Source: Tieghemostelium lacteum (Eukaryota; Evosea; Eumycetozoa; Dictyosteliales; Raperosteliaceae). From it: a stretch of DNA of 64,000 nucleotides. A program made the translations under genes and the position numbers. Shown here piece by piece: positions 1 through 12,905 of the stretch. Within the stretch, counting starts at the first letter, position 1. Each line of letters starts with the position of its first letter. Location of the stretch: NCBI GenBank assembly GCA_001606155.1, contig LODT01000031.1, positions 1-64,000 of the forward strand, read 5' to 3'. The notes beneath the pieces are model-generated. The model searched no databases. It saw only the letters and a list, made by a program, of their open reading frames with translations, and was not told the origin of the DNA.

Positions 1-99
1 CCTTTTACTTTTTTTTTTTTTTTTTTTTTTTAATTAATTTCTGTCTGTTGAAAACGTTTATGTGGATTTATTTAAAGGGGTTATCCAAAATAATATAGT

Positions 100-935
100 A
101 ATAATGTTAGTACCAACAGTTAACAAATCAACACCACCTAAAATATCATTTTCTCAAGCTTGTATGATGCAAGAAACCAATTCTTAAACAACAATGATAT
201 TGAATCCTCTACTATTACTGCATTAATACACTACAAACCAACAGAGGGAATAATAACGCCTACTCAATTAATGATATTTTACGGGAGCCAAACCTCTCGG
301 AGGAACAAGTTAGGAACGATACCACCAACACACCTTCTTTGATCCAACTTGACCAAAAAAAGCCTCAATTTTGAAACAAGACTTCTTAAGATGGCTTGAA
401 GATTCAAAAAAAAAGAAACTATATCAAGACAATGTCATATTACTCTCAAATATCTTTCACTCAAATGAGGAGGAAAACCACCCAGATTTCGATAAAGGTT
501 TATTGAAACTTTGAACATCATTTTCAAAAATAATGTGTAACTAGCTATTAAACAATTTTAATTCATTAAATTAACATCATTTCATAGATCTATATAATAA
601 TAGTAAGCAAGAAAAGAATTTCTCAAGAACAATAATATGAATGAAGAAGATTTGGTTTGGAATGCTCCAAATGAAACTATATTTAAAATATTCCCCTTTC
701 TTAACACTTCTCATCCAACCAAAACATTATTTGAAAAGTAAAACCATCTAACCTCAGTCCAGGATCCTTTTGACGAAACTTTGAATAGATTTGAAGAGTT
801 TGAGAGTTTGGATAATAGTTATAAACTTCAATTGGATAATTATTTTAAAATTTTTGTGCAGAAGATATCAAAAGAACAGACACAATTACTACAAAATGAT
901 AGTGATAATGATCATTCAAACAATTTTAAATAAAT
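100..935 (+). pseudogene. decayed unrecognised coding relic
   Basis: Coding-like stretches with host-like codon use lie in different frames of the plus strand, for example one beginning MLVPTVNKSTPP near 104, one with DFLRWLEDSKKKK near 382, and one beginning MNEEDLVWNAPNE at 637 and ending at a TAA near 933. The pieces do not form one open frame and no single convincing set of introns joins them. I do not recognise the family. It looks like one old gene with several breaks, or neighbouring fragments of it. Confidence 0.4.
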
Positions 936-1026
936 ACTGTATTTTACTTCCTTTAGATTTTTTAAATCCCTATTAATTAAAAATTGAGCCCTGCCCTTCA
1001 TGGACAAAAAACAAAAAAAAGACGTG

Positions 1027-1048
1027 GGGCAAAATCATGATTTTGCCC
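1027..1048. repeat. perfect 22-bp palindrome
   Basis: The bases from 1027 to 1048 read identically on both strands (arms GGGCAAAATCA and its complement). This is G/C-richer than the surroundings. The string TGCCCTTCAT occurs both just before it (about 988) and overlapping its right arm (about 1044). It may be the tip of a mobile element or an RNA hairpin; nothing else ties it to a function. Confidence 0.6.
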
Positions 1049-1445
1049 TTCATTTTTTCACCTATAATTGCCCTCATTGATTCCATTTTTCTAATTTTGC
1101 GATTCTATGTTTTTTTTGGCGACTAATATGATTCGTATTTGTATTATTTGATGATCCTGTATTATTTAACATAGAAATGTTGTGGACAGATATTTTTGAT
1201 AATTAAATTTCAATTGTGATAGTTTTGGTAAATTTGTATTTAGTCAAAAACATTCATTCATCATATTGGAATATAAAGTGTATTTATAGTGGGAAAAGTG
1301 TTGTAAATTTAGTAAAAATTCATTATAAATTCACAATAAGGAAAGAGAAGTAAATTTACTATTAATATATATAAATAAAATCAATGTATAGAAAATTATA
1401 TTGTTATTTTAGACTGTTATTAATAGAATTTTGTTAAAATTCTAA

Positions 1446-1477
1446 ATTTAACCGTGGAAATCACTTATGTTTGTAGT
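1446..1477 (+). repeat. left terminal inverted repeat
   Basis: Left arm of the 32-bp inverted repeat, one mismatch (position 20 of the arm) to the right arm. Confidence 0.7.
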
Positions 1478-1572
1478 TGTATATAATTATACTTGAATGT
1501 TTATTTAAATAGTGTAAAGATAATATAAACAAGAATTTAATTTATTTTCTTCTTTTTACTTTATCATTAGAG

Positions 1573-1990
1573 TTAGTGATCAACTGTGATTAGTTTACTA
1601 AAATATTGTTTACGTATATTAATAGTAAGGTTGCGAAATATACACACACAATATTTTTCAATGGTACCATGCAATGGAAGACCAGAGACTATATTGATTA
1701 AAACCTGAATATCTGTTTCGGTGTATGAATAGTATTCTGCTTTGATAAAGAGTCTTTGACTAGTATGCATTTGTAATAGTTTCAATTCTTTTGTCCCAAA
1801 ACTCAACTCTTTCACTGGTGTGGTAAATGACCTATCATGTGAGGAGTTTTAATTACTATTGGGTTGCCAAAATGGGTAGGTTTAGTCAAACAATATAATC
1901 CTCTGATCAACATCATCATCTGCACCTGCATTACCAATATGAAATACATTTAAAATTGTCTCTCTCAACTTTTGTAAAATGAAAGAAATG
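1573..1990 (-). pseudogene. coding-like fragment inside the TIR element
   Basis: On the minus strand an 80-codon open frame (1573-1815, begins MKELSFGTKELKLLQ) and, further upstream at about 1875-1990, a second coding-like piece (KLRETILNVFHIGNAGADDD) suggest the remains of a gene carried by the 1.39-kb element. No domain is recognised. It could also be chance open frame. Confidence 0.25.
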
Positions 1991-2469
1991 TATTAAATAT
2001 AGGAAAGATTGTATATTAGTTAGGTAAAATTATATTGGAGTTGCGAAATAAATTTTCTATAGTTGTGAAATTAAATTACCATTGTCAATGTATTTTTCCT
2101 TTATAAAAGTTGGGAAATGTGGTGGAGATATTCCTAGATTTGTTTATTAATACACTATAAATTTATCTTTTACAATAATAACGTATTCCCACGTTTATTC
2201 CTCATTCAAATTCCTAATTTTGGAAATTTAATAAATGCATGTGTGGTAACAAGTGTGGAATGTTAAAAATTATGAAAATTAAGTTAAAAAAACAAAAAAA
2301 AACATTATTTAAATGAACTTAAAATTCTAACCCAATTAAAGGAGTCTTACTAAGTAGTGAAGATAGGATGTACAATTATGTAATCAATTTTAACAGAGTA
2401 ACTACAATTACATTAAAGAGTTTAGAGCGTTTTATACACTTGACAAGCTTTTAGAGCTCCAGATTAAAA

Positions 2470-2745
2470 CACAAAATTTTTACTATGTGTATATCTCACT
2501 AATCTGGATATTAAAGAGAAACCATTCCATGTAGATCTTCTCAAATGTAATAACCAGTATTTAGGTCTTAATGAAGATTCAAAAAGTGATTCTGAGAATA
2601 TAAAATATCTGATTGGATATAGGTATGATGAATAAGTGGTGAATCTTTATCTAGGGATGAAGATGATGAAGATGATGAAGATGATGAAGATGATGATTCA
2701 TATTCAAGAAGAGCATTATACTCAACTGATAATGAATATAAATAA
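2470..2745 (+). pseudogene. fragment with acidic DDE-rich tail inside the TIR element
   Basis: A coding-like stretch (YLTNLDIKEKPFHVDLLKC) runs into the repeat (GATGAA/GATGAT)n and ends at TAA near 2743. The two halves join in frame if a 32-bp GT..AG segment around 2622-2653 is removed, which is unusually short for an intron, so either this is a mini-intron or the gene is broken. The encoded tail is strongly acidic. The family is not recognised. Confidence 0.3.
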
Positions 2746-2799
2746 ACAGTTTACAGTTTAATACATATTTTAAACAACTTTCATGTATAGATATACACC

Positions 2800-2831
2800 A
2801 CTACAAACATATGTGATTTCCACGGTTAAAT
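2800..2831 (-). repeat. right terminal inverted repeat
   Basis: Right arm of the 32-bp inverted repeat. It contains an in-frame stop at 2827-2829 that marks the upstream limit of the open frame of the neighbouring gene. Confidence 0.7.
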
Positions 2832-4362
2832 ATATCTATCACATACATACAATATAATACCACTTGTTAAAAAGTTAATAATTGGTAAATATCTTCTCTC
2901 TTGGTTGGACTACTTTGGACCCAAAAGCTCTTCTCAAATTGAAAGTCTGGAAATTCAATATAAAGAGGATAGAGGTGAAGGATTTGAGAAATATCTCTTT
3001 GAAAATACTCCTTTCCCAATTTCACCTGATCATTTACAAACACTAACCATTGCCAGTTACAACGATTTAGATGTTGATCCAATATCACAAATATTCCAAG
3101 GATATCATCATTTAGAGAAACTCATCTTTAGTTATCGTGGTAATTATCGCTGTGGTCCAGAACTCAATAAATTTGAAAAACTCTCAGTTCTATCTCATCT
3201 ATCTCATCTGGAATTAGATAGAGTAATAATATCACCAAATGAATTTATTGAATATTTATCAACAACCACATCAAACATTGAAACTCTCATTCTAAACTCT
3301 ATAAAACTAAAAGATATCATCGACAATAATAATAACGATATCAATAATAGTAATAATAATAATAGTAGTAGTATTGGATTGGAAATTATAATTGAACAAA
3401 TATCACATTCAAAAACGATAAAAACTTTAAAAGTTATAAATCAACATGGAGTAACTTTTCCTTCTATTGATATCAACAGTATCATTGATTTGATAAACAG
3501 AAATTCAACTTTAGAAACTATAATCTATGATACTATTAATAACAAAGATAAATATAATCCATCTCCATCTCCATCTCCAACAATAACATCAACAACATCC
3601 AATGATAAAGTTAATATCAACAATCAAACTCTTAAACATCTAAAAATCAATCAATCTCCGATTGATATTCACACATTATGGATATCAAATTCAAATTTAA
3701 GAACAATTAGAATATTGAATGAACAACAACCAATATCATTATTTGAAAACCCACAAACATTCCATCACCAATCCATTCGAAAATTACATTTTCTATTCAC
3801 AACAACTTTGCAATCTCTGATTGAAATAATACAACTCCATCTTCCAACTCTCACCACCATAAAAATCAGCACCCAGAATAATAGAAAACAATATGATATT
3901 GACTTTGAAACAATATTTACAGCAATTTCCAATAATAATAATATTGATTCAATTTCGATTAAATGTTCAATTAAAATCAAACAATTTCTAAGATTAATCA
4001 AAAGAAATATCAAACATCTCAGAAAGATTCATGTAAATTTAAGATTAAATGCAAAAGGTATTGAAGTTATTGGAAGTAAACTTAACCAAAACACCAATAT
4101 TCAAGAATTTTCATTAGAATCATGGAGCGATTATAGTTTAATTATTGATATGGTATTAGTACTTTTAGAATGTAAACATTTAACATCAATTAAATGTCAT
4201 GGGTATGGACCCTATACCAGAACTAACAGTGTACATGAATTTCCATATGTTTTAAATTTAAATTTAGATCATTTATTAAATGTTCAAATATATTTTCAAC
4301 ATCAAAAACAATGTGAAAACATTTTAGATAAATATTTTTACTCAATTCAAAATAACAAATAA
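2830..4362 (+). pseudogene. 5'-truncated LRR/F-box-type protein gene
   Basis: An open frame of about 510 codons runs from a stop inside the right TIR (2827-2829) to TAA at 4360. It has no usable ATG: the first in-frame Met lies close to the C-terminus. The product has irregular leucine-rich repeats (for example HLEKLIFSYRG, NIETLILNSIKLKD, NSTLETIIYDTINN) with an Asn/Ser insert near residue 140 and a Pro-Ser run (SPSPSPS). This is the style of the large dictyostelid F-box/LRR-like family, whose N-terminal F-box is missing here. The simplest reading is that the adjacent DNA element removed or separated the 5' end. An unseen upstream exon is the alternative. Confidence 0.55.
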
Positions 4363-4516
4363 AAATGATAACTATTGGGTTCTATTTTCGAAAAAATAAG
4401 CAAACATCTTATACCTATTTTTAATAGCTCGGAATAATAAATAGTTTTCCCACTATAAATTTCCGACCTAATAAATTTATAAAATCGGCAAAAAATAAAT
4501 AATAATTTTCGTTATC

Positions 4517-5610
4517 ATGTTAATTATGATACAGGTAGTATTTATAGTCTTATTATTAAATATAACTCAATATTTAACAAATGCAACAGGTAAATATTTA
4601 TTTGTTAATCGATATGAAATTAGATAAGTTAACATTATCTAACTTTATCAAATTTTCCAAAGAACCAATAATTCTTAGATACACCGAACCTGAAAGAATA
4701 TATGAAGACGAACCAAACTATTGTTATGTTAATTATTATATGGAATTTGAAAAATTTAAGTTTTCTAAAATTTCAGGAAAATACTATGAAACTCATACAG
4801 CTGAAGGTTTGACTCGGAGCCCTATAACAAAGATTAATTTAGAATTTAAATTCCCTTTAAATCTTGATATTGAAAAATTTTATTTTTCTTTTGATGATGG
4901 AAAAGAAATTGAAAAGTATTACCCTGAGTATTTATGTAAAAGTGAATATTAAATTAGGTTTATTATAGTAAAATATCGAAATAGATTTCTAATTTAATTA
5001 AATTATAGTACAACCAAAATGTATTGGATATAATAGTAAATACACTGATTGGTGGTTTATTTTTGCAAAATCATATAACCCAACTAATCCACAAGAAGGT
5101 CCAGCTAAAGGAGGTTACATTTATGCTGATTCAAATGGAATGATTATGGTAAATATAAATTTTAATTATTAATTTATTATTATTCTAACTCTTTATAAAC
5201 AGGAGCTAAATGATAAAGTTAATACAGTTCAAGATTTTTCTACTGATACTAAAAGAATTAATGATATGTTAAATATTCACATTTCCTCAGCATTTAATTA
5301 TAATGAAAAATTGATTAGAGAATGTGCTGAATGTCCAGATGAATATCATGTTAATTTTAAAACTTCTGAATGTAATGAGAACATGTATGCTCAAACTTGG
5401 TATCATGACACAATATATAGGAAAAAGGACAATTCTATATACCAAAAACATTTAGATTATAGACATTCTCACTCAAAAGTAAGAATAAGATCAAAAATAT
5501 ATATTGATTTAAATATTTATATATTTTTTTTAAAATAGTATTTAATAACTGTAAACACTGAAAATGGTGATGGTTATCACTACGCATACTTTTTTTTCAT
5601 TTATTATTAA
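4517..5610 (+). CDS. secreted DNase II-like protein, five predicted exons
   Basis: Predicted exons are 4517-4589, 4663-4935, 5009-5148, 5203-5478 and 5539-5610; all junctions are GT..AG and keep frame. The first acceptor is uncertain because one at 4623 also keeps frame but would give a 34-bp intron. Exon 1 encodes a signal peptide (MLIMIQVVFIVLLLNITQYL), so the protein is probably secreted or lysosomal. Exon 3 carries CIGYNSKYTDWWFIFAKSY followed by GGYIYADSNG, which resembles the N-terminal DWWF..YK and Y-Y-D block of deoxyribonuclease II. The end of exon 4 has HSHSKY, resembling the catalytic DHSKW motif. It is shorter than typical DNase II (about 350 residues), the region holding the first HxK motif is not evident, and about 100 residues precede the DWWF block. 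It may be a divergent or inactive member. Confidence 0.5.
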
Positions 5611-5974
5611 TAAATCGATCATATAATTATAATTTGTCCTGTAGATAAAAATATACTTTTATTTTCTATTTTAATATTAATAAATGGATGATTTATTGAC
5701 TACAAATGATAAATTTAATAGTTGTATATTTTTTAATTTATTAGTGATTAAAAAGTTCATTAAAAATTAATTTAGGAAAAATTAAAAGTCAATAAAAAAT
5801 ATCATAAAATTTGAATTTATCGGTTAATTTATTGATATTAAAAAATTCATAAATATTGTTTTTATGACTCATCATAAAAATAACTCAAATCTTTAAAAAA
5901 AAAAAAACACTTAAAATCCAATTTCATTTTACATTTTTTAAAATTTTTGATAAGTGTCATTAAAAAAAATCTGA
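5611..5974. other. intergenic, AT-rich
   Basis: Only T- and A-rich spacer with short near-repeats (ATTAATAAAT at about 5605 and 5674; TCATAAAAA). I see no terminal inverted repeat matching sequence behind the 5975-9523 gene pair. Confidence 0.5.
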
Positions 5975-6878
5975 ATGTTTAAAAAAAAAATTTTTTGTAA
6001 AGTATTAGAATGTTTTAATTCACACGACTTAAAAGATGATGTAGATGTAGGAAGACATGGTGTACTGCACAAGTTGGGATGTATAATGTGTGGTGCACCA
6101 TACACCAATGAGAAGTCATACAGATCTCATTGTACTACCAAATCACATTGTTCAAAATTAATTGATGGTTAGTTGAAAGGAGACTGTTACTTTAAATAAA
6201 TATTAAAATCATTTAATTAATTAACTCAAAAACAATTGTTTTATTTTTTTTGTATATTTAATTTTAATTTCATTTAGAATCTACATTAAAGAATTCATTA
6301 GCAATATTTTTAGATATAAATAATATTGAAGAAGTTATTAAAGCAATTAAGTTTAAACATACAACATTTTTAGAAAAAGATCAAAAAAAAAAATCTCAAG
6401 AGGATCTAGAAATCCAAATATTGGACTCCAATAATGAATTAGAATATTTAAATACTCCAATAGTTTTAAATGAAAACATTATCGAAGATGAAAACAAAGA
6501 AGAAGAAAACAAAGATGACCTTGAGATAGGTGATAATAATAATGAAGGTAAAAATTAATGCTCTAGGGATTGTGTATTGAAAGTTTTATTAATTATTATT
6601 TTATATTTTATAGATTTTATCAATTTGGTTAAATTAGGTTATAAATTTAATTTATCAAAAAAAAAAATTGAAAAATTAATTGATTTTTTTAGCACAGTCC
6701 AGTTTGAAAATTTAAAAAATTTTAACAGAAGAGAAAAAAATTATATACAGGCAATTTCAGAAATATCTTCATTAAAAATAGGAGAAGATATTATATATTA
6801 CATTGACCCAACTATTTATATAAACATTTTTTTAAATCAGTTTGGATATGATAGTTTTGTGTATACCAACAGCAATAA

Positions 6879-6936
<58 letters not shown>

Positions 6937-8454
6937 TGCATACACCACAGATTTATTGATGGTTCAATATTTAAATATAGTAATAATAATACAATATGGG
7001 TACAAATTCATTTTGATGGATTAAACCTTGGTAATCACAATTCCCCCACTGGATGTCAACTATCATTTCTCAATTCAAAAAATCAATTCTTTAATAATAA
7101 TAGATTTTTGGTATCATTGATCCCCAAAAATGTAGATTTCCATCATGTTTGTTACAAAATATTCCAAAATTTTCGAAAATATGAAGAATCACCTCTTAAG
7201 GTGGGAGAAAAGATGGTTTATTTTAAAATTGGAAACTCAGTTAACGATGCACCTCAGAAATCAAAAACTGCTGGTGTCAAGCAATTTAACCACAAACTGA
7301 AACCATGCATCAATTGTAATATAAATCTTCAAGAGATTTTAAAAATTGGTCCCAGTAATACACCTAGGTGTATTGAAACCACAAAAGAATTTTATATTTC
7401 CCTTAATAATAATATTAATCAACCCAACTTCAACAAACAACATTTTCAAGATCAAGCCGAACAATTAGGACTCAACTTCAGACCCTCTTTCCTAATTTCA
7501 CATTCATTCAATATACACACCCAACTACCAGTGGATATACTCCACTCAGAATTATTAGGTGAATTGAAAAAAGAGATTAGTTTTATAATTCATGGTATCA
7601 AAAAAGAAGATTTAGAAACATTTAGAAACAGAAGTAAAAAGTTTATAAATTCTAATCTATTTGAAATTGATAATTTCTTTGCAAGAGAAATTATTAATGT
7701 ATCGGAGTATATATTAGAAATTATTTATGGTCTGGTACCAATTGAATTTTATCAATGCTTGTCATTGCACATTAAATATGTGTTTATTTTATTACAAAGT
7801 AAAATATCACAATATCAATTAGAAGACTGTAGAGTACTCATTAATAGACATCATTCTCAATATCTAGAATTGTATGGTATTAGTAAAATTGGAAATAGTT
7901 CTAATTTTCATAGTATATACCATTTACTTGAAGATATCACAAGACATGGTACCCCTATCCATTTCTGGTCGAACGTATACGAAAAAAACAACAAGCTTAT
8001 AAGAAATATAAAGAATAGTTTAACAAATCATCAAAACTACGAAAGAATACTGAAAATAGAAATGGTTTTGATGAAAGAGAAATTAAAACTTTATAAAGAC
8101 CCACCCAATAATAATACAACAGGTATTTTTACAAAAGGAAGGCGAATCAATAGTAATAAGAATTTAATTATCAATACAACTTCACCACAATTTTATAGTA
8201 TTTCAAACTTAGATGGTGAATATTATAAAATTAAAGATTCCATTGAACTAAATAGCCCAAACAACACAAAATGGTATGGATTAATTGTTGCTATTTTAGA
8301 AGAAAATATAATAATAAATTGGTATGAAAAGAATATAACTTTGGATTTCTATTCACTGACTGCCAGACATGAAATCCTCCCATTCTCTAATATAATTCAT
8401 AGAGTAAGAAAAGTTTATTTAGGTGAAAATAAATTTATATTCTATGAATTTTAA
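5975..8454 (+). CDS. Tnp2/CMC-like transposase-related protein with zinc finger
   Basis: Exons 5975-6167, 6278-6547 and 6614-8454 join in frame to 767 residues. Near the N-terminus is a C2H2 finger (C36-x2-C39-x12-H52-x5-H58). An acidic linker follows, then an AAC-encoded Asn run (6880-6935). The core has the order expected of CACTA/Tnp2-related transposases: a first acidic motif QIHFDGLNLG (Asp about residue 289), a second LPVDILHSELLG (Asp about 462), and a C-terminal block SNFHSIYHLLEDITRHGTP (about 585-605) that resembles the conserved region downstream of the catalytic core in Tnp2-like proteins. The frame is intact over 2.3 kb with spliced introns, which suggests recent activity or retention as a host gene. 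No flanking inverted repeats were found. Family placement is from motif memory, not a search. Confidence 0.6.
6880..6935 (+). repeat. AAC microsatellite encoding poly-Asn
   Basis: An (AAC)n run within the transposase-like frame encodes about 19 Asn. The other Asn runs in the window use AAT, so this one differs in codon. Confidence 0.9.
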
Positions 8455-8542
8455 AATTAAATAAAGTAATGTGCAAAATAAAGTATTATATATAAAAATA
8501 ATTTTTTTTTTTTTCTGTTAGCTTTTTGTGACATTAGTTGCA

Positions 8543-9523
8543 ATGACCAACATAAATTGCACAAATTTATTCGAGGAGAATATTTATCCTGATGATACTA
8601 CTACCTTTTCACCATTATCTATCAGAAATATAAATAATAATAATACATCATACAATATTGGAGCACCGTTAAATATTAATATGCAATACCCACACACTCC
8701 ATTAAATAATGTAGAAGTAAACACATTACCTACTCCTATTTTAAATCCTAATATTATTCCTATAGATCCCAATTTTTTATCAACCACAGTAAACAACAAT
8801 ACACCACTAAATATTCACCCTTCCCAAACTCCAATCAACAATTCAGCCAACGCATTACCGAGAACACAAGTTAATAAATCCGATTTAAATAATATACACG
8901 AAATCTTGAAAGATATACAAAAAAGAATTAAAAATATTGAACACAATCAATACAAATATATTTTAGATTTATCAGAAAGAGAGATAAAAAATGATCTATT
9001 GGATATCTTATTTAATTCAGCATCAATGGAAGTCACAATAGCAGAGTTAAGACTTGTATTATTAAAATATACAACGTCTATAACTGAGAGTTCAATTACT
9101 ATTTTTATTAATTTTTTATCTAACAAAAAAAACAATTATAACGATAGGATCAAAAATTTTTATGATAAATTGGTGGATATTGATGTAAATATAGTTATAT
9201 AATATAATTTAATTTAATTTAATTTCTAAATAATTGGAACTAATTTTTTCACATTAATATATCTATAGAAAGAAAATATAATTAAAGAACTTAGAGATGG
9301 TCTAAATAGACATCCAAAAACATTTTCAACATTACTACTTGATGACAAAGACAATAGGTATCCTAACTTAACAAAATTTATTAAAGAGCTATATAATTAT
9401 AAAAAAGATCTGTCAGTCAACCATATCGATTATATTATCCAAAGGTTAAAATCTAAAAAAAATAGAAATAAAGTAAAAAGAAATAGAATTGAGTTTGAAA
9501 ACTCAAATGTTGAAGATGATTAA
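8543..9523 (+). CDS. second gene behind the transposase-like gene, unrecognised
   Basis: It starts 88 bp after the transposase-like stop, on the same strand. Exons 8543-9184 and 9269-9523 join in phase 0 at GT..AG ends to give 298 residues. The first in-frame ATG is at 8543. The N-terminal half is low complexity, rich in Asn, Thr and Pro (APLNINMQYPHTPLNN). From about residue 105 it becomes predicted coiled coil and helical (EILKDIQKRIKNIEHNQYKY), and the C-terminus is basic (RLKSKKNRNKVKRNR). No domain is recognised. Two-gene CACTA elements carry a transposase plus an accessory DNA-binding protein, and the position and basic tail would fit such a role, but this is inference. Confidence 0.55.
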
Positions 9524-9699
9524 TTGATTAAATGAGGTTGTTGTTTTATATTATAGTTTATTTTGTTTTCACCATCACAATTATTTAATGTAAATAATTA
9601 TTTACACAGGTGTGAAAGCAAAGATTAAAATTTACAATTTATTGATTTTTTTAAATTTTTTTTTATTTACATTTGGTATAAGTAAGTGATGGACAAAGA

Positions 9700-10190
9700 G
9701 AAAAATGATAGTTGGTATTAATAGATATTGAATTTTGTAGCCAGGTGAGGATATTGAGTTTTTGAAGTTTCAGACTTTGGTTTCTAGATATTTAACAAAG
9801 ATGGAAGTGGTTTCTGCAACTTCAGAGTATCATATGAATGGAAAACACTGTTTGGAAAATAATAGATTTTGATTCTGCAACTAGGTGAAGTTGAATCTAT
9901 TGCAATGATGAAACTGATGAAGAGAATCAAGGACAAGATGAAGATATTGGATTATTTTGGAGAGATTTTAGGTTCAAGAAGATTTGTAGAGGATTTTGAC
10001 CTTAGAGGTGATAGTGATGAAAAAAGAATTGAAAAAATGAACAGATTAAAGATTGTTGAAAGAAACAGATCAGGCAATGCAATTTATTAATTAAATTATA
10101 GTATTAATACTGAGAATGTAATGAACAAAAATCTATATAGATTGCACCTTCAGAAGCCGAGAGAAAAGAAAAGTTAACAAAAAGTGAAAT
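9700..10190 (+). pseudogene. gene relic, copy A of an inverted pair
   Basis: Coding-like pieces in different frames include EDIEFLKFQTLVSRYLTKME (about 9747) and RIEKMNRLKIVERNR (about 10027), then ENVMNKNLYR (about 10111). The same order, with similar DNA (TTTGGAAAA, ATAGATTTTGATTCT), recurs on the minus strand at 12060-12905. The two therefore descend from one source. The family is unrecognised. The part after 10190 runs into histidine-kinase-like sequence. Confidence 0.45.
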
Positions 10191-10780
10191 TAGATGAACA
10201 GTTGATGAAGCATCGTAGTGGTCATGCAGTTATTATTGTCTCTGATAATGGTAGAGGTATTGATCCACAATTTATTTCAAAAGTTTTTGATTGATATAGT
10301 CAAACTGAGACTCCAAGAAACTTTGGTTTGGGAATTGGTTTATATTGATTGAAGAATCAGTCCCTTATCACCTACCAACACTATTTTAAGTTAAGTAGTT
10401 TAAATAATGAAATCAGAGACCTCGTGGTGGTTCCTATGAAGATGAAATTTACCTGGGCTCTGATGATAGTTCTAGATTTACAATGTAACCAAGTTCATCT
10501 CCTTTCCAAACTGCTTCTTCTATAGGTAGTAGTATTATAACACCTAGATCTGATGATGACTTTGGTAGTAGTGAAGATGACAATCATCAGAATCATACAC
10601 AACCAATTAAAGAACCTCAAGAAGAAGAGGATTCCGATGACGAATTGAAAAAACTTATACAACAAAAATTAAAACAATCGAACAACAAAAAGAAGGTACT
10701 GCAACAACTTCAAAAGACTCATTTAAAAAAGTATTTGGTTATCTAAAGCAACTATCAGAATACTTGAAATATGTCACATA
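10190..10780 (+). pseudogene. histidine kinase ATPase-domain fragment
   Basis: From about 10206 the frame reads SGHAVIIVSDNGRGIDPQF followed by ISKVFD, then an in-frame stop, then QTETPRNFGLGIGLY. These match the N/G1 box (DNGRGI), F box and G2 box (GLGIGL) of the HATPase domain of hybrid sensor histidine kinases, a large dictyostelid family. Further down is a Ser/Asp/Glu-rich low-complexity tail (IITPRSDDDFGSSEDDN) typical of the linker in such kinases. Frames change and stops interrupt it, and the dimerisation and receiver domains are missing, so it is a broken remnant. Confidence 0.6.
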
Positions 10781-10814
10781 TAGATATTGAAAATAAATAA
10801 AATATAAATGTTAT

Positions 10815-11025
10815 TTTTACAAGTCATAAAATAGTTTTTAACAAGTCATAAAATTGGCATGTATGATTTAATATTTTATATTTTTAAAAGTCATAAAATA
10901 AATTTTTAACAAATAATAAAATTGTCATTTATGATTTAATATTACATATTTTTAAAAATCATAAAATAATTTTAACAAATAATAAAATTGTCATTTATAG
11001 TTTAATATTTTATATTTTTATTACG
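10815..11025. repeat. about three tandem copies of a ~67-bp AT-rich unit
   Basis: Successive units contain TTTTTAACAA, (G/A)TCATAAAAT and ATTTATGATTTAATATT in fixed order, starting near 10838, 10903 and 10969, with a partial unit (ACAAGTCATAAAATAG) before them. Copies two and three are closer to each other than to copy one. Confidence 0.7.
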
Positions 11026-11209
11026 AAATAAATAGCTGATTTATTAAACTTTTATTTATAATAAAACATATCATTACAATTATTTAAATTAAATTTTTAT
11101 TATATTTATATCAAATCATTAAATATTCATTTGATAGTAAGGACAAATGAATCATTTATGACTCATTTAAAGTTTATTAATGTCAATAAAAATATCATTT
11201 ATTTATCAA

Positions 11210-11905
11210 TTAAATATCATATATGATAAAAATGTATGCGTAGTGCACATTATCCCAATGCTCTTTACTATCTATTGAACTTTCATTTCCAGACATAAAA
11301 TTATAGAGTATAGTGAGATCAGTAACTGAATCTGGTATTGATCCTTTTACTAATGGGTATTTTAAATTGCTACCCAAAAATAATATTTCAACTGTAGGTG
11401 GTACTCTAATTGTCTCTTGCCAAAAATCCAATTCTAATTTTACAACATAATCCATTTTCATTCCCAATATTAATGTTTTTAATGTATTGGGAAAACTATT
11501 TAATAATAGTGGTGGTTTGATTCGTTGTATTAGTGCATGTGTTTTACATTGTATTTGAAGTTGTTGAATATTTATTGTTGTTGAGCATTCTAATTTATTT
11601 ACTAAATCTATAAAGATTTGGTTTTGTTCCTCATATTGAATATTGATATTTTCAAATTTAATAGAAAATATATATTTTATAATATTATTAATTTTTAATT
11701 CATTATTATTAGTCTTTTTAAATAGTTTAAAAATTGATTGGTATTTGCTGGCTTGTTGACTTTTGTATATATAATCTATTGGAAATTCTTCAAATGTAAA
11801 CTTTTTAATTTGTTGATTTAGTGTTTTACATGTTGATAGATATGATAATTTATCATTATCATTTAATTGTTGAAAAATTATTTTTAAAACTGTTAGTGGT
11901 AACAT
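11210..11905 (-). CDS. F-box / FNIP-repeat-type protein, short
   Basis: The frame encodes 231 residues. The N-terminus (LPLTVLKIIFQQLNDNDKLS followed by YLSTCKTLNQQ) has the LP..(I/L)L..I...L pattern of an F-box, which binds Skp1 in SCF ubiquitin ligases. Near the C-terminus VKGSIPDSVTDLTILYNF is a FNIP-type repeat (IP.SVT.L), a motif massively expanded in dictyostelids. Family members usually have many FNIP repeats and 400-700 residues, so this is a short or truncated member. It lies alone among relics. Confidence 0.6.
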   Translation of the reverse strand: MLPLTVLKIIFQQLNDNDKLSYLSTCKTLNQQIKKFTFEEFPIDYIYKSQQASKYQSIFKLFKKTNNNELKINNIIKYIFSIKFENINIQYEEQNQIFIDLVNKLECSTTINIQQLQIQCKTHALIQRIKPPLLLNSFPNTLKTLILGMKMDYVVKLELDFWQETIRVPPTVEILFLGSNLKYPLVKGSIPDSVTDLTILYNFMSGNESSIDSKEHWDNVHYAYIFIIYDI

Positions 11906-12059
11906 TAAAATATCAAAAAAAAAAAAATTTTTAAAAAATCTGATTTTAAATAATTTGATTTTGTTTTATTAACATTGATACTTTTTGATTTGGTGGTGAG
12001 ATATTACTAATAGAGTTACTACCACTATAGCTATTTAAGTGTCATAACTTCTGCAGAAT

Positions 12060-12905
12060 TCTTTAGTCTATTTGTTGTTGAAGTTGTTGAACTTCACCTT
12101 TACTCAAAATGGTCTCTAACTGCTTCTCTTCATCCACCAATTATAGCCTTCTTCTCCAATGCAGATTGATCACTTTTAGCTATAGTCGCATCCTTAATCA
12201 ACTCATTAAAGATCTTAGTCTCCTGTTTCAAATGACTTTCATGTTCCTTCAACTGTTTCTTCATATACACTACGATCCATCTTCAATTATACATCTAATT
12301 TAACTTTTTGTTTGAGTAACTTTTCTTTTTCTCTCAGGTTCTGCAATCTGATAATATAGACTTTTGTTCATTACATTCATTCTCGGTATTAATAAATTGC
12401 ATTGCCCATCTTTTCCTTCAACCAATGCATCCTTCTCTTTCTCTGCAATCTTTAATCTATTCCGTTTTTCCCTTCTCTTTTCAATACTATCATCAATATA
12501 TTTTCCTGTACGATCTATAGCCATTATTCAATTTCACCTTTTAGAATCAAAATCTATTTTTCCAAATCAATACCCTTCCCTTTAGAATAGGTCTCAAATC
12601 ACCCAATGTTGTCTTTTTCAAATTATACTGAAACATTTACAAAATGGTCCATGGTTCTAGAACACCTGCAGGTAATTTAAAATTTCCATTACAATCTTTG
12701 TAATCATAAGTCTTTGTTGGTGTGACATTGATAGATTTCCAAATAGTAACCACTCCATCATTGCAACTACTGGAGGTGTAGCATTTTTTTTACTAGTTTG
12801 TGAAGAGGAACTTTGTGATGACCTTATTTTCCTTGACTTGGTACTTCAGGTTCCATTCTAATATTCCAAAGTACACCCTCTGTATTTGATCAAATGAATT
12901 CTATT
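12060..12905 (-). pseudogene. gene relic, copy B of an inverted pair
   Basis: Read on the minus strand: NVTPTKTYDYKDCNGNFKLP (about 12690-12750), LKKTTLGDLRPILKGRVLIW, a 74-codon piece MAIDRTGKYIDDSIEKRREK ending at 12300, then coiled-coil-like pieces KKQLKEHESHLKQETKIFNE and LVDEEKQLETILSKGEVQQL down to about 12060. They lie in shifting frames with stops between, so the gene is broken. The block with RNRLKIAEKEK and NVMNKSLYYQIAEPERK parallels copy A at 9700-10190. The host protein is not recognised; helical Lys/Glu-rich segments suggest a coiled-coil protein. Confidence 0.45.

What the first reader, a model, noticed from the sequence alone, without database searches (positions are those of the whole stretch)
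5975..9523. Intact two-gene module: spliced transposase-like gene plus accessory gene
A 767-residue protein with a C2H2 finger and the FDG / LPVDILH / FHSIYHLLEDI motif order of Tnp2/CMC-like transposases is intact across three exons, in a zone full of broken genes. An intact second spliced gene follows 88 bp later with coiled-coil and basic regions. The pair could be an active DNA element or a captured host system.
Basis: partly seen in the sequence, partly recalled or inferred. Interest (0 to 1): 0.75.

Follow-up and report, generated by a model that had tools for sequence, protein, structure and literature searches.

The report
Recently mobile CACTA-like transposon in amoeba
The two intact genes sit inside a complete 5.7-kb cut-and-paste transposon of a social-amoeba-like genome; it has matching inverted ends and three near-identical copies, so it moved recently, and one insertion split a nuclease-like gene whose halves now lie on different contigs.

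Summary
Gene A (767 aa, 3 exons) and gene B (294-301 aa, 2 exons) are intact inside a 5,668-bp element, window 5578-11245, bounded by perfect 12-bp inverted repeats CACTACGCATAC...GTATGCGTAGTG. The own genome holds three full copies, identical over 5,214 bp and differing only in AT-rich subterminal repeats; a contig end cuts through a fourth. Gene A carries the motif order D-D-C(2)C-H-H(3)H-E described for CACTA/Mirage/Chapaev/Transib ('CMCT') transposases (PMC12730594). Profile support is weak: Pfam Plavaka E = 0.005, below cut-off. Codons around D2 and C(2)C show dN/dS of about 0.09 against one relic. A paralogue on contig C34, unbroken at this site, shows one original target and a 2-bp AT duplication. 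That site's two flanks now lie on different copies, so copies have exchanged flanks by recombination or misassembly. The element also carries a broken histidine-kinase-like host fragment. It is a new family of a known kind, not a captured host system; my literature searches, seen as listings, showed no CACTA-type element of dictyostelids.

The parts
5578..11245 (+). Whole transposon (5,668 bp in this copy), bounded by 12-bp perfect inverted repeats
   Evidence: blastn against two other copies, C23:1757355-1763024 (+) and C29:860186-854524 (-), with unrelated flanks
5578..5589 (+). Left terminal inverted repeat CACTACGCATAC; imperfect pairing continues for about 58 bp (78%)
   Evidence: 7 exact occurrences in the genome against 0 for the reversed-pattern control
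11234..11245 (-). Right terminal inverted repeat GTATGCGTAGTG
5975..8454 (+). Gene A, transposase-like: exons 5975-6167, 6278-6547, 6614-8454; 767 aa; N-terminal C2H2-type finger; D289, D366, C386/C389, H465, H587/H591, E594
7186..7560 (+). D2 - C(2)C - VDILH segment of gene A; weak match to Pfam Plavaka transposase (E = 0.005, profile 214-311 of 325)
   Evidence: one reversed and five shuffled controls hit nothing; two relics of the same region also hit nothing
8543..9523 (+). Gene B, accessory protein of unknown family: exons 8543-9172/9184/9193 and 9269-9523; coiled-coil-like stretch and basic C-terminus read by eye
   Evidence: no Pfam match above cut-off; exon 1 found in this genome only in the three copies of this element (E up to 0.1)
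9700..10770 (+). Cargo: broken fragments resembling a host histidine-kinase-like gene (with stops and a deletion relative to C42:62006-62500)
   Evidence: the C42 gene has a HATPase_c domain (E = 2.9e-17); pieces of 60 bp or more match genomic loci at 68-90% DNA identity
10812..11020 (+). Right subterminal tandem repeat, 68-bp unit x 3.1, AT-rich, with TTTATGA/TCATAAA words
4517..5577 (+). Left flank: 5' part of an interrupted DNase II-like gene (exons 4517-4589, 5009-5148, 5203-5478, 5539-5577), last two bases AT = target duplication
   Evidence: the remainder of this gene lies beside the right end of the C29 copy
11246..11911 (-). Right flank: truncated F-box/FNIP-repeat gene, not the original partner of the left flank
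   Evidence: F-box E = 1.2e-4, FNIP E = 1.5e-4, both above cut-off

Best explanation
[quoted passage not shown] Shown: the element's ends, its copies, its two intact open genes, and one empty target site with a 2-bp duplication. Inferred: gene A is a DDE transposase that recognises the CACTA-type inverted ends, perhaps through its N-terminal C2H2-type finger. It would cut both strands with D289, D366 and E594 and join the ends to target DNA with a 2-bp stagger. Gene B would assist, most likely by binding the AT-rich subterminal repeats, as the second protein of En/Spm elements does (recalled). Copies moved recently enough to be identical over 5.2 kb. The broken histidine-kinase-like stretch is passenger DNA taken up before the copies spread.
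For: Three full copies on different contigs, both orientations, unrelated flanks. Perfect 12-bp CAC...GTG ends, 7 exact sites against 0 control sites. No difference among the three copies over 5578-10791. Paralogue on C34 running through the junction, 88% protein identity; gap-free alignment best when exactly 2 bp (AT) are counted once. Motif order D-D-C(2)C-H-H(3)H-E as described for CMCT transposases (PMC12730594, section 16 and passages). Pfam Plavaka E = 0.005 over the D2-C(2)C segment, 0 of 6 scrambled controls. dN/dS 0.09 over 65 codons against one relic. TTTATGA words, chosen after looking at the counts, 4 and 6 in the two subterminal regions against 0.5 and 0.6 expected, and 1 in the 4.8-kb middle.
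Against: No transposase profile reaches its cut-off. Whole exon 3 had no transposase hit in Pfam; genome-wide Transposase_21 and Plavaka searches found nothing here, not even gene A (Transposase_21 rang in 0 and Plavaka in 1 of 14 control genomes, none above cut-off, so these searches say little). Two relics did not hit Plavaka. The fold prediction failed (pLDDT 32.5). The left end of the C23 copy (..AC) has no 2-bp match to any of the four right flanks. Gene B has no known relative and no tested function. Identity of the copies could be inflated if the assembler collapsed them.
Confidence: 0.85

Rival explanations
1. Flank exchange is real: homologous recombination between identical copies, or transposition using ends of different copies, moved chromosome arms so that the DNase II-like gene's halves ended on different contigs.
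For: The C34 paralogue shows C26-left and C29-right were one gene. C29-left and C23-right share CA at the ends and, judged by eye, keep one reading phase. The element is 6 kb from one contig end, about 24 kb from a second and 102 kb from a third.
Against: A 5.7-kb identical repeat is where assemblers misjoin, and contig C20 stops 369 bp inside a fourth copy. No read data were available.
Confidence: 0.35
2. Flank exchange is an assembly artefact: the contigs are chimaeric at the repeat, and the window's right-hand 53 kb does not belong beside its left 5.6 kb.
For: Mismatched flanks in an assembly that breaks inside the same repeat; a random pairing of identical repeats explains it without any biology.
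Against: The copies carry a few copy-specific differences in the subterminal repeats, which an assembler might have used; contigs are otherwise long (up to 2.0 Mb among those listed).
Confidence: 0.65
3. The element belongs to the Plavaka lineage rather than to CACTA/EnSpm or a separate lineage.
For: The only transposase profile that rang is Plavaka; Plavaka makes 2-bp or 2-3-bp duplications (PMC12730594, passages).
Against: Score is under the cut-off; termini CACTA..TAGTG are neither TGT..ACA nor CATCA..TGATG as reported for Plavaka A and B.
Confidence: 0.25
4. A domesticated host gene pair: the two genes serve the amoeba and were merely duplicated.
For: Intact frames and purifying selection on the relic comparison.
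Against: Three copies bounded exactly by inverted repeats in unrelated flanks, one of them shown to sit in a gene; selection on a transposase in a mobile element gives the same signal.
Confidence: 0.03

Closest known systems
CACTA/EnSpm elements
   Same: Termini CACTA...TAGTG; D-D-C(2)C-H(3)H-E order; AT-rich subterminal repeats; a second, unrelated protein gene (En/Spm tnpA, recalled); passenger host fragments (recalled for plant CACTA).
   Different: 2-bp rather than 3-bp duplication at the one proven site; no match to Transposase_21; gene B has no detectable relative in the searches made.
Plavaka (PF18759)
   Same: Weak profile match over D2-C(2)C (E = 0.005); 2-bp duplications.
   Different: Below the curated cut-off; different termini from those reported (PMC12730594, passages).
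Known Dictyostelium DNA transposons (Tdd-4/5; DDT and thug elements)
   Same: DNA elements of the same host group; Tdd-4/5 are cut-and-paste elements with a Gypsy-integrase-like transposase (PMC2836005, abstract opening in the listing); DDT-A/DDT-S are called putative DNA transposons (PMC4559204, passages); thug recalled.

Membership tests
CMCT clade (as defined in PMC12730594) | Three acidic catalytic residues D, D, E | tested here: inconclusive
   D289, D366, E594 in the expected motif context; D2 kept in two relics; no usable structure and no relative covering D1 or E
CMCT clade (as defined in PMC12730594) | C(2)C and H(3-4)H between second D and last E | tested here: met
   C386-IN-C389 and H587-SIY-H591, E594 follows
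CMCT clade (as defined in PMC12730594) | 5'-CA..TG-3' termini | tested here: met
   CACTACGCATAC..GTATGCGTAGTG at 3 of 3 full copies
CMCT clade (as defined in PMC12730594) | 2-5 bp target-site duplication | tested here: met
   AT at the C26-left/C29-right site, checked against the empty paralogue; CA at C29-left with C23-right or C26-right; C23-left unmatched; 0 of 3 copies as assembled show 2 bp
CACTA/EnSpm | 3-bp duplication | tested here: not met
   2 bp at the one proven site
CACTA/EnSpm | Transposase_21 (PF02992) profile | tested here: inconclusive
   No match, but the genome search rang in 0 of 14 control genomes
Plavaka | PF18759 above its cut-off | tested here: not met
   16.6 bits against 26.3; 0 matches genome-wide
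Plavaka | Termini TGT..ACA or CATCA..TGATG | tested here: not met
   CACTA..TAGTG; Plavaka termini from PMC12730594 passages
KDZ (Kyakuja-Dileera-Zisupton) | 7-8 bp duplications | tested here: not met
   2 bp; KDZ values from PMC12730594 passages

The most novel reading that the evidence does not exclude
A separate, so far undescribed CMCT lineage of Amoebozoa: CACTA ends, 2-bp duplications, a finger-bearing transposase plus a private second protein. It is still mobile, and its copies have actually exchanged chromosome arms among three or four contigs, splitting genes such as the DNase II-like gene.
Probability: 0.25. Interest if true: 0.6.

Novelty: new member of a known kind. Interest (0 to 1): 0.45.

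Why it matters
It gives a complete, apparently intact and recently mobile CACTA-type element in a compact dictyostelid-like genome, where the DNA transposons I found discussed are Tdd-4/5 (integrase-like) and the putative DDT elements. It links the CMCT group to an amoebozoan with ends, genes and a target site in hand, and a two-gene transposition test in laboratory Dictyostelium would be straightforward. It also warns that this window's contig may be chimaeric, or marks a real chromosome exchange, at 5578-11245.

Tried and rejected
Profile search of whole exon 3: no transposase. PDB sequence search of exon 3: 10 matches up to E 10, best 0.0013 over the poly-N tract (a fusion construct), no transposase named. 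IMG/VR scan: 113 pattern stretches, 0 relatives (the tool warns that records near the window's genome may be left out). AlphaFold on exon 3 without an alignment: pLDDT 32.5, not used and not searched by fold. Non-autonomous copies with these ends: the 7 exact TIR sites all belong to 4 copies; with up to one mismatch 25 sites against 33 for the control, so no excess. Intron loss in the kinase-like cargo (a retro-capture) was rejected: the roughly 110 bp missing from the element are coding in the C42 gene, so it is a deletion. The joined DNase II-like protein gave no DNase II match in Pfam at E up to 1 and nothing in PDB at E up to 10; only the right half did, E = 0.0019, 17.9 bits against a cut-off of 23, so the name is tentative while the pairing rests on the C34 paralogue. 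Paralogues did not prove the C29-left/C23-right pairing: the C29 piece's only weak relatives (29%) lie in long frames on C31 that are not among the MACPF matches. Rfam: 0 matches in 5400-11400.

Full report
What is there. Gene A (5975-8454, 767 aa) and gene B (8543-9523, 294-301 aa) are intact as described, with AT-rich introns. The window is contig C26:1-64000 of a 23.3-Mb genome in 43 contigs.

The mobile unit. Searching the own genome, exon 3 of gene A and exon 1 of gene B each occur three times at 100%: C26, C23 and C29. Alignment of the three regions shows that similarity starts at window 5578 and ends at 11245 (C23 shares two further bases by chance) with unrelated sequence outside. The ends are CACTACGCATAC and GTATGCGTAGTG. 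The 12-mer occurs 7 times in the genome and its reversed control 0 times; six sites are the ends of the three copies and the seventh is a right end on C20, whose contig (226,900 bp) stops 369 bp into a fourth copy. Between 5578 and 10791 the three copies do not differ at all; the differences are a few gaps and shifts in the AT-rich repeats at 10792-11015.

Protein A. The motif order is D289, D366, C386-x2-C389, H465, H587-x3-H591, E594. [quoted passage not shown] all three hold here. Sequence profiles are weak: of six overlapping sub-segments scanned, one hit Plavaka at E = 0.005 and one hit an unrelated DUF at 0.018; four hit nothing. The Plavaka hit repeats, where one reversed and five shuffled versions hit nothing and two relics also hit nothing. 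Assigning catalytic residues is therefore inference from motif and context.

Relics. Old related pieces are scattered: C23:703273 (about 82% protein identity), C23:1120231 (37% over 41 aa, D2 kept), C35:24259 (43% over 37 aa), C19:707k (112 bp, 94.6%), C11:774k (57 bp, 94.7%), and weaker ones on C21 and C23:1132k. Over the 65 gap-free codons shared with C23:703k, which include D2 and C(2)C, I count 16 synonymous and 8 non-synonymous differences, dN/dS 0.09. This is one short comparison.

Target sites. The left flank in the window is the 5' part of a gene (176 aa when spliced) cut at the element; a DNase II-like sequence (weak Pfam match) begins at the right end of the C29 copy. A paralogue on C34 runs through the junction in one frame at 88% identity (residues 162-336 of the joined protein), and at DNA level the two flanks abut there. 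Counting 2 bp (AT) once gives the best, gap-free alignment (score 340, against 330, 333, 335 and 336 for 0, 1, 3 and 4 bp). So this insertion originally had C26-left and C29-right as flanks and made a 2-bp AT duplication. Of 12 possible left-right pairings, 4 share 2 bp (C26L with C29R or C20R; C29L with C26R or C23R), and 0 of the 3 pairs as assembled do. C29-left with C23-right (a MACPF gene on the C23 side) keeps the reading phase by eye, which is suggestive only. C23-left has no 2-bp partner and remains unexplained.

Recombination or misassembly. Both explain swapped flanks; the contig break inside a fourth copy favours misassembly, so I put 0.65 against 0.35. The element itself does not depend on this.

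Other contents. 9700-10770 is a decayed copy of a histidine-kinase-like host gene. Two pieces of it gave no Pfam match, but its close relative at C42:62k, 89% identical in DNA, has a HATPase_c domain (E = 2.9e-17). Pieces match 17 genomic places outside the element's copies, a lower bound because candidates were capped. It is shared by the three full copies, hence taken up before they spread. The right end has a 68-bp tandem repeat; TTTATGA words are enriched in both subterminal regions (a word chosen after looking). This resembles the subterminal binding arrays of CACTA elements (recalled).

Novelty. Searches for dictyostelid+CACTA (0 papers), Dictyostelium+CACTA+transposase (19 papers), amoebozoa+EnSpm (2 papers), Dictyostelium DNA transposon names (5 papers), dictyostelid+transposon+lacteum (4 papers) and Tieghemostelium lacteum with assembly and transposable elements (0 papers) showed no description of this element in titles and abstract openings. 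Beyond those I saw only passages of PMC4559204 and PMC5006619. Most subscription papers are not held. DDT and thug elements could not be compared. I therefore call it a new family of a known kind.

Noticed in passing
window 1-5577 versus 11246-64000: The two sides of the element are not original neighbours; the contig may be chimaeric here or mark a real exchange.
   Followed up: partly
window 12268-12527; C29:861143-861651; 15 other places listed: Broken or diverged pieces of the same histidine-kinase-like family as the element's cargo lie about 1 kb outside the C26 and C29 copies and at other loci.
   Followed up: partly
L054 (C34:641381-644893): A segment about 92-96% identical to the window's 2828-4378 gene plus the DNase II-like gene: a segmental duplicate, with pieces of the 2828-4378 gene on both sides.
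   Followed up: partly
C19:707150-707600 (L059), C11:774150-774750 (L058): Very short (112 and 57 bp) but 95%-identical fragments of the element alone in other DNA; how such small pieces got there is unexplained.
   Followed up: no
L023:5608-6996 and L025:66-629: Another copy of the element appears to have cut a MACPF-domain gene (Pfam E = 9.3e-24 for the C23 part); its 300-residue tail has 34 matching places in this genome, itself included.
   Followed up: partly
window 4578-4952: A 124-codon open frame lies almost wholly within the predicted first intron (4590-5008) of the DNase II-like gene.
   Followed up: no
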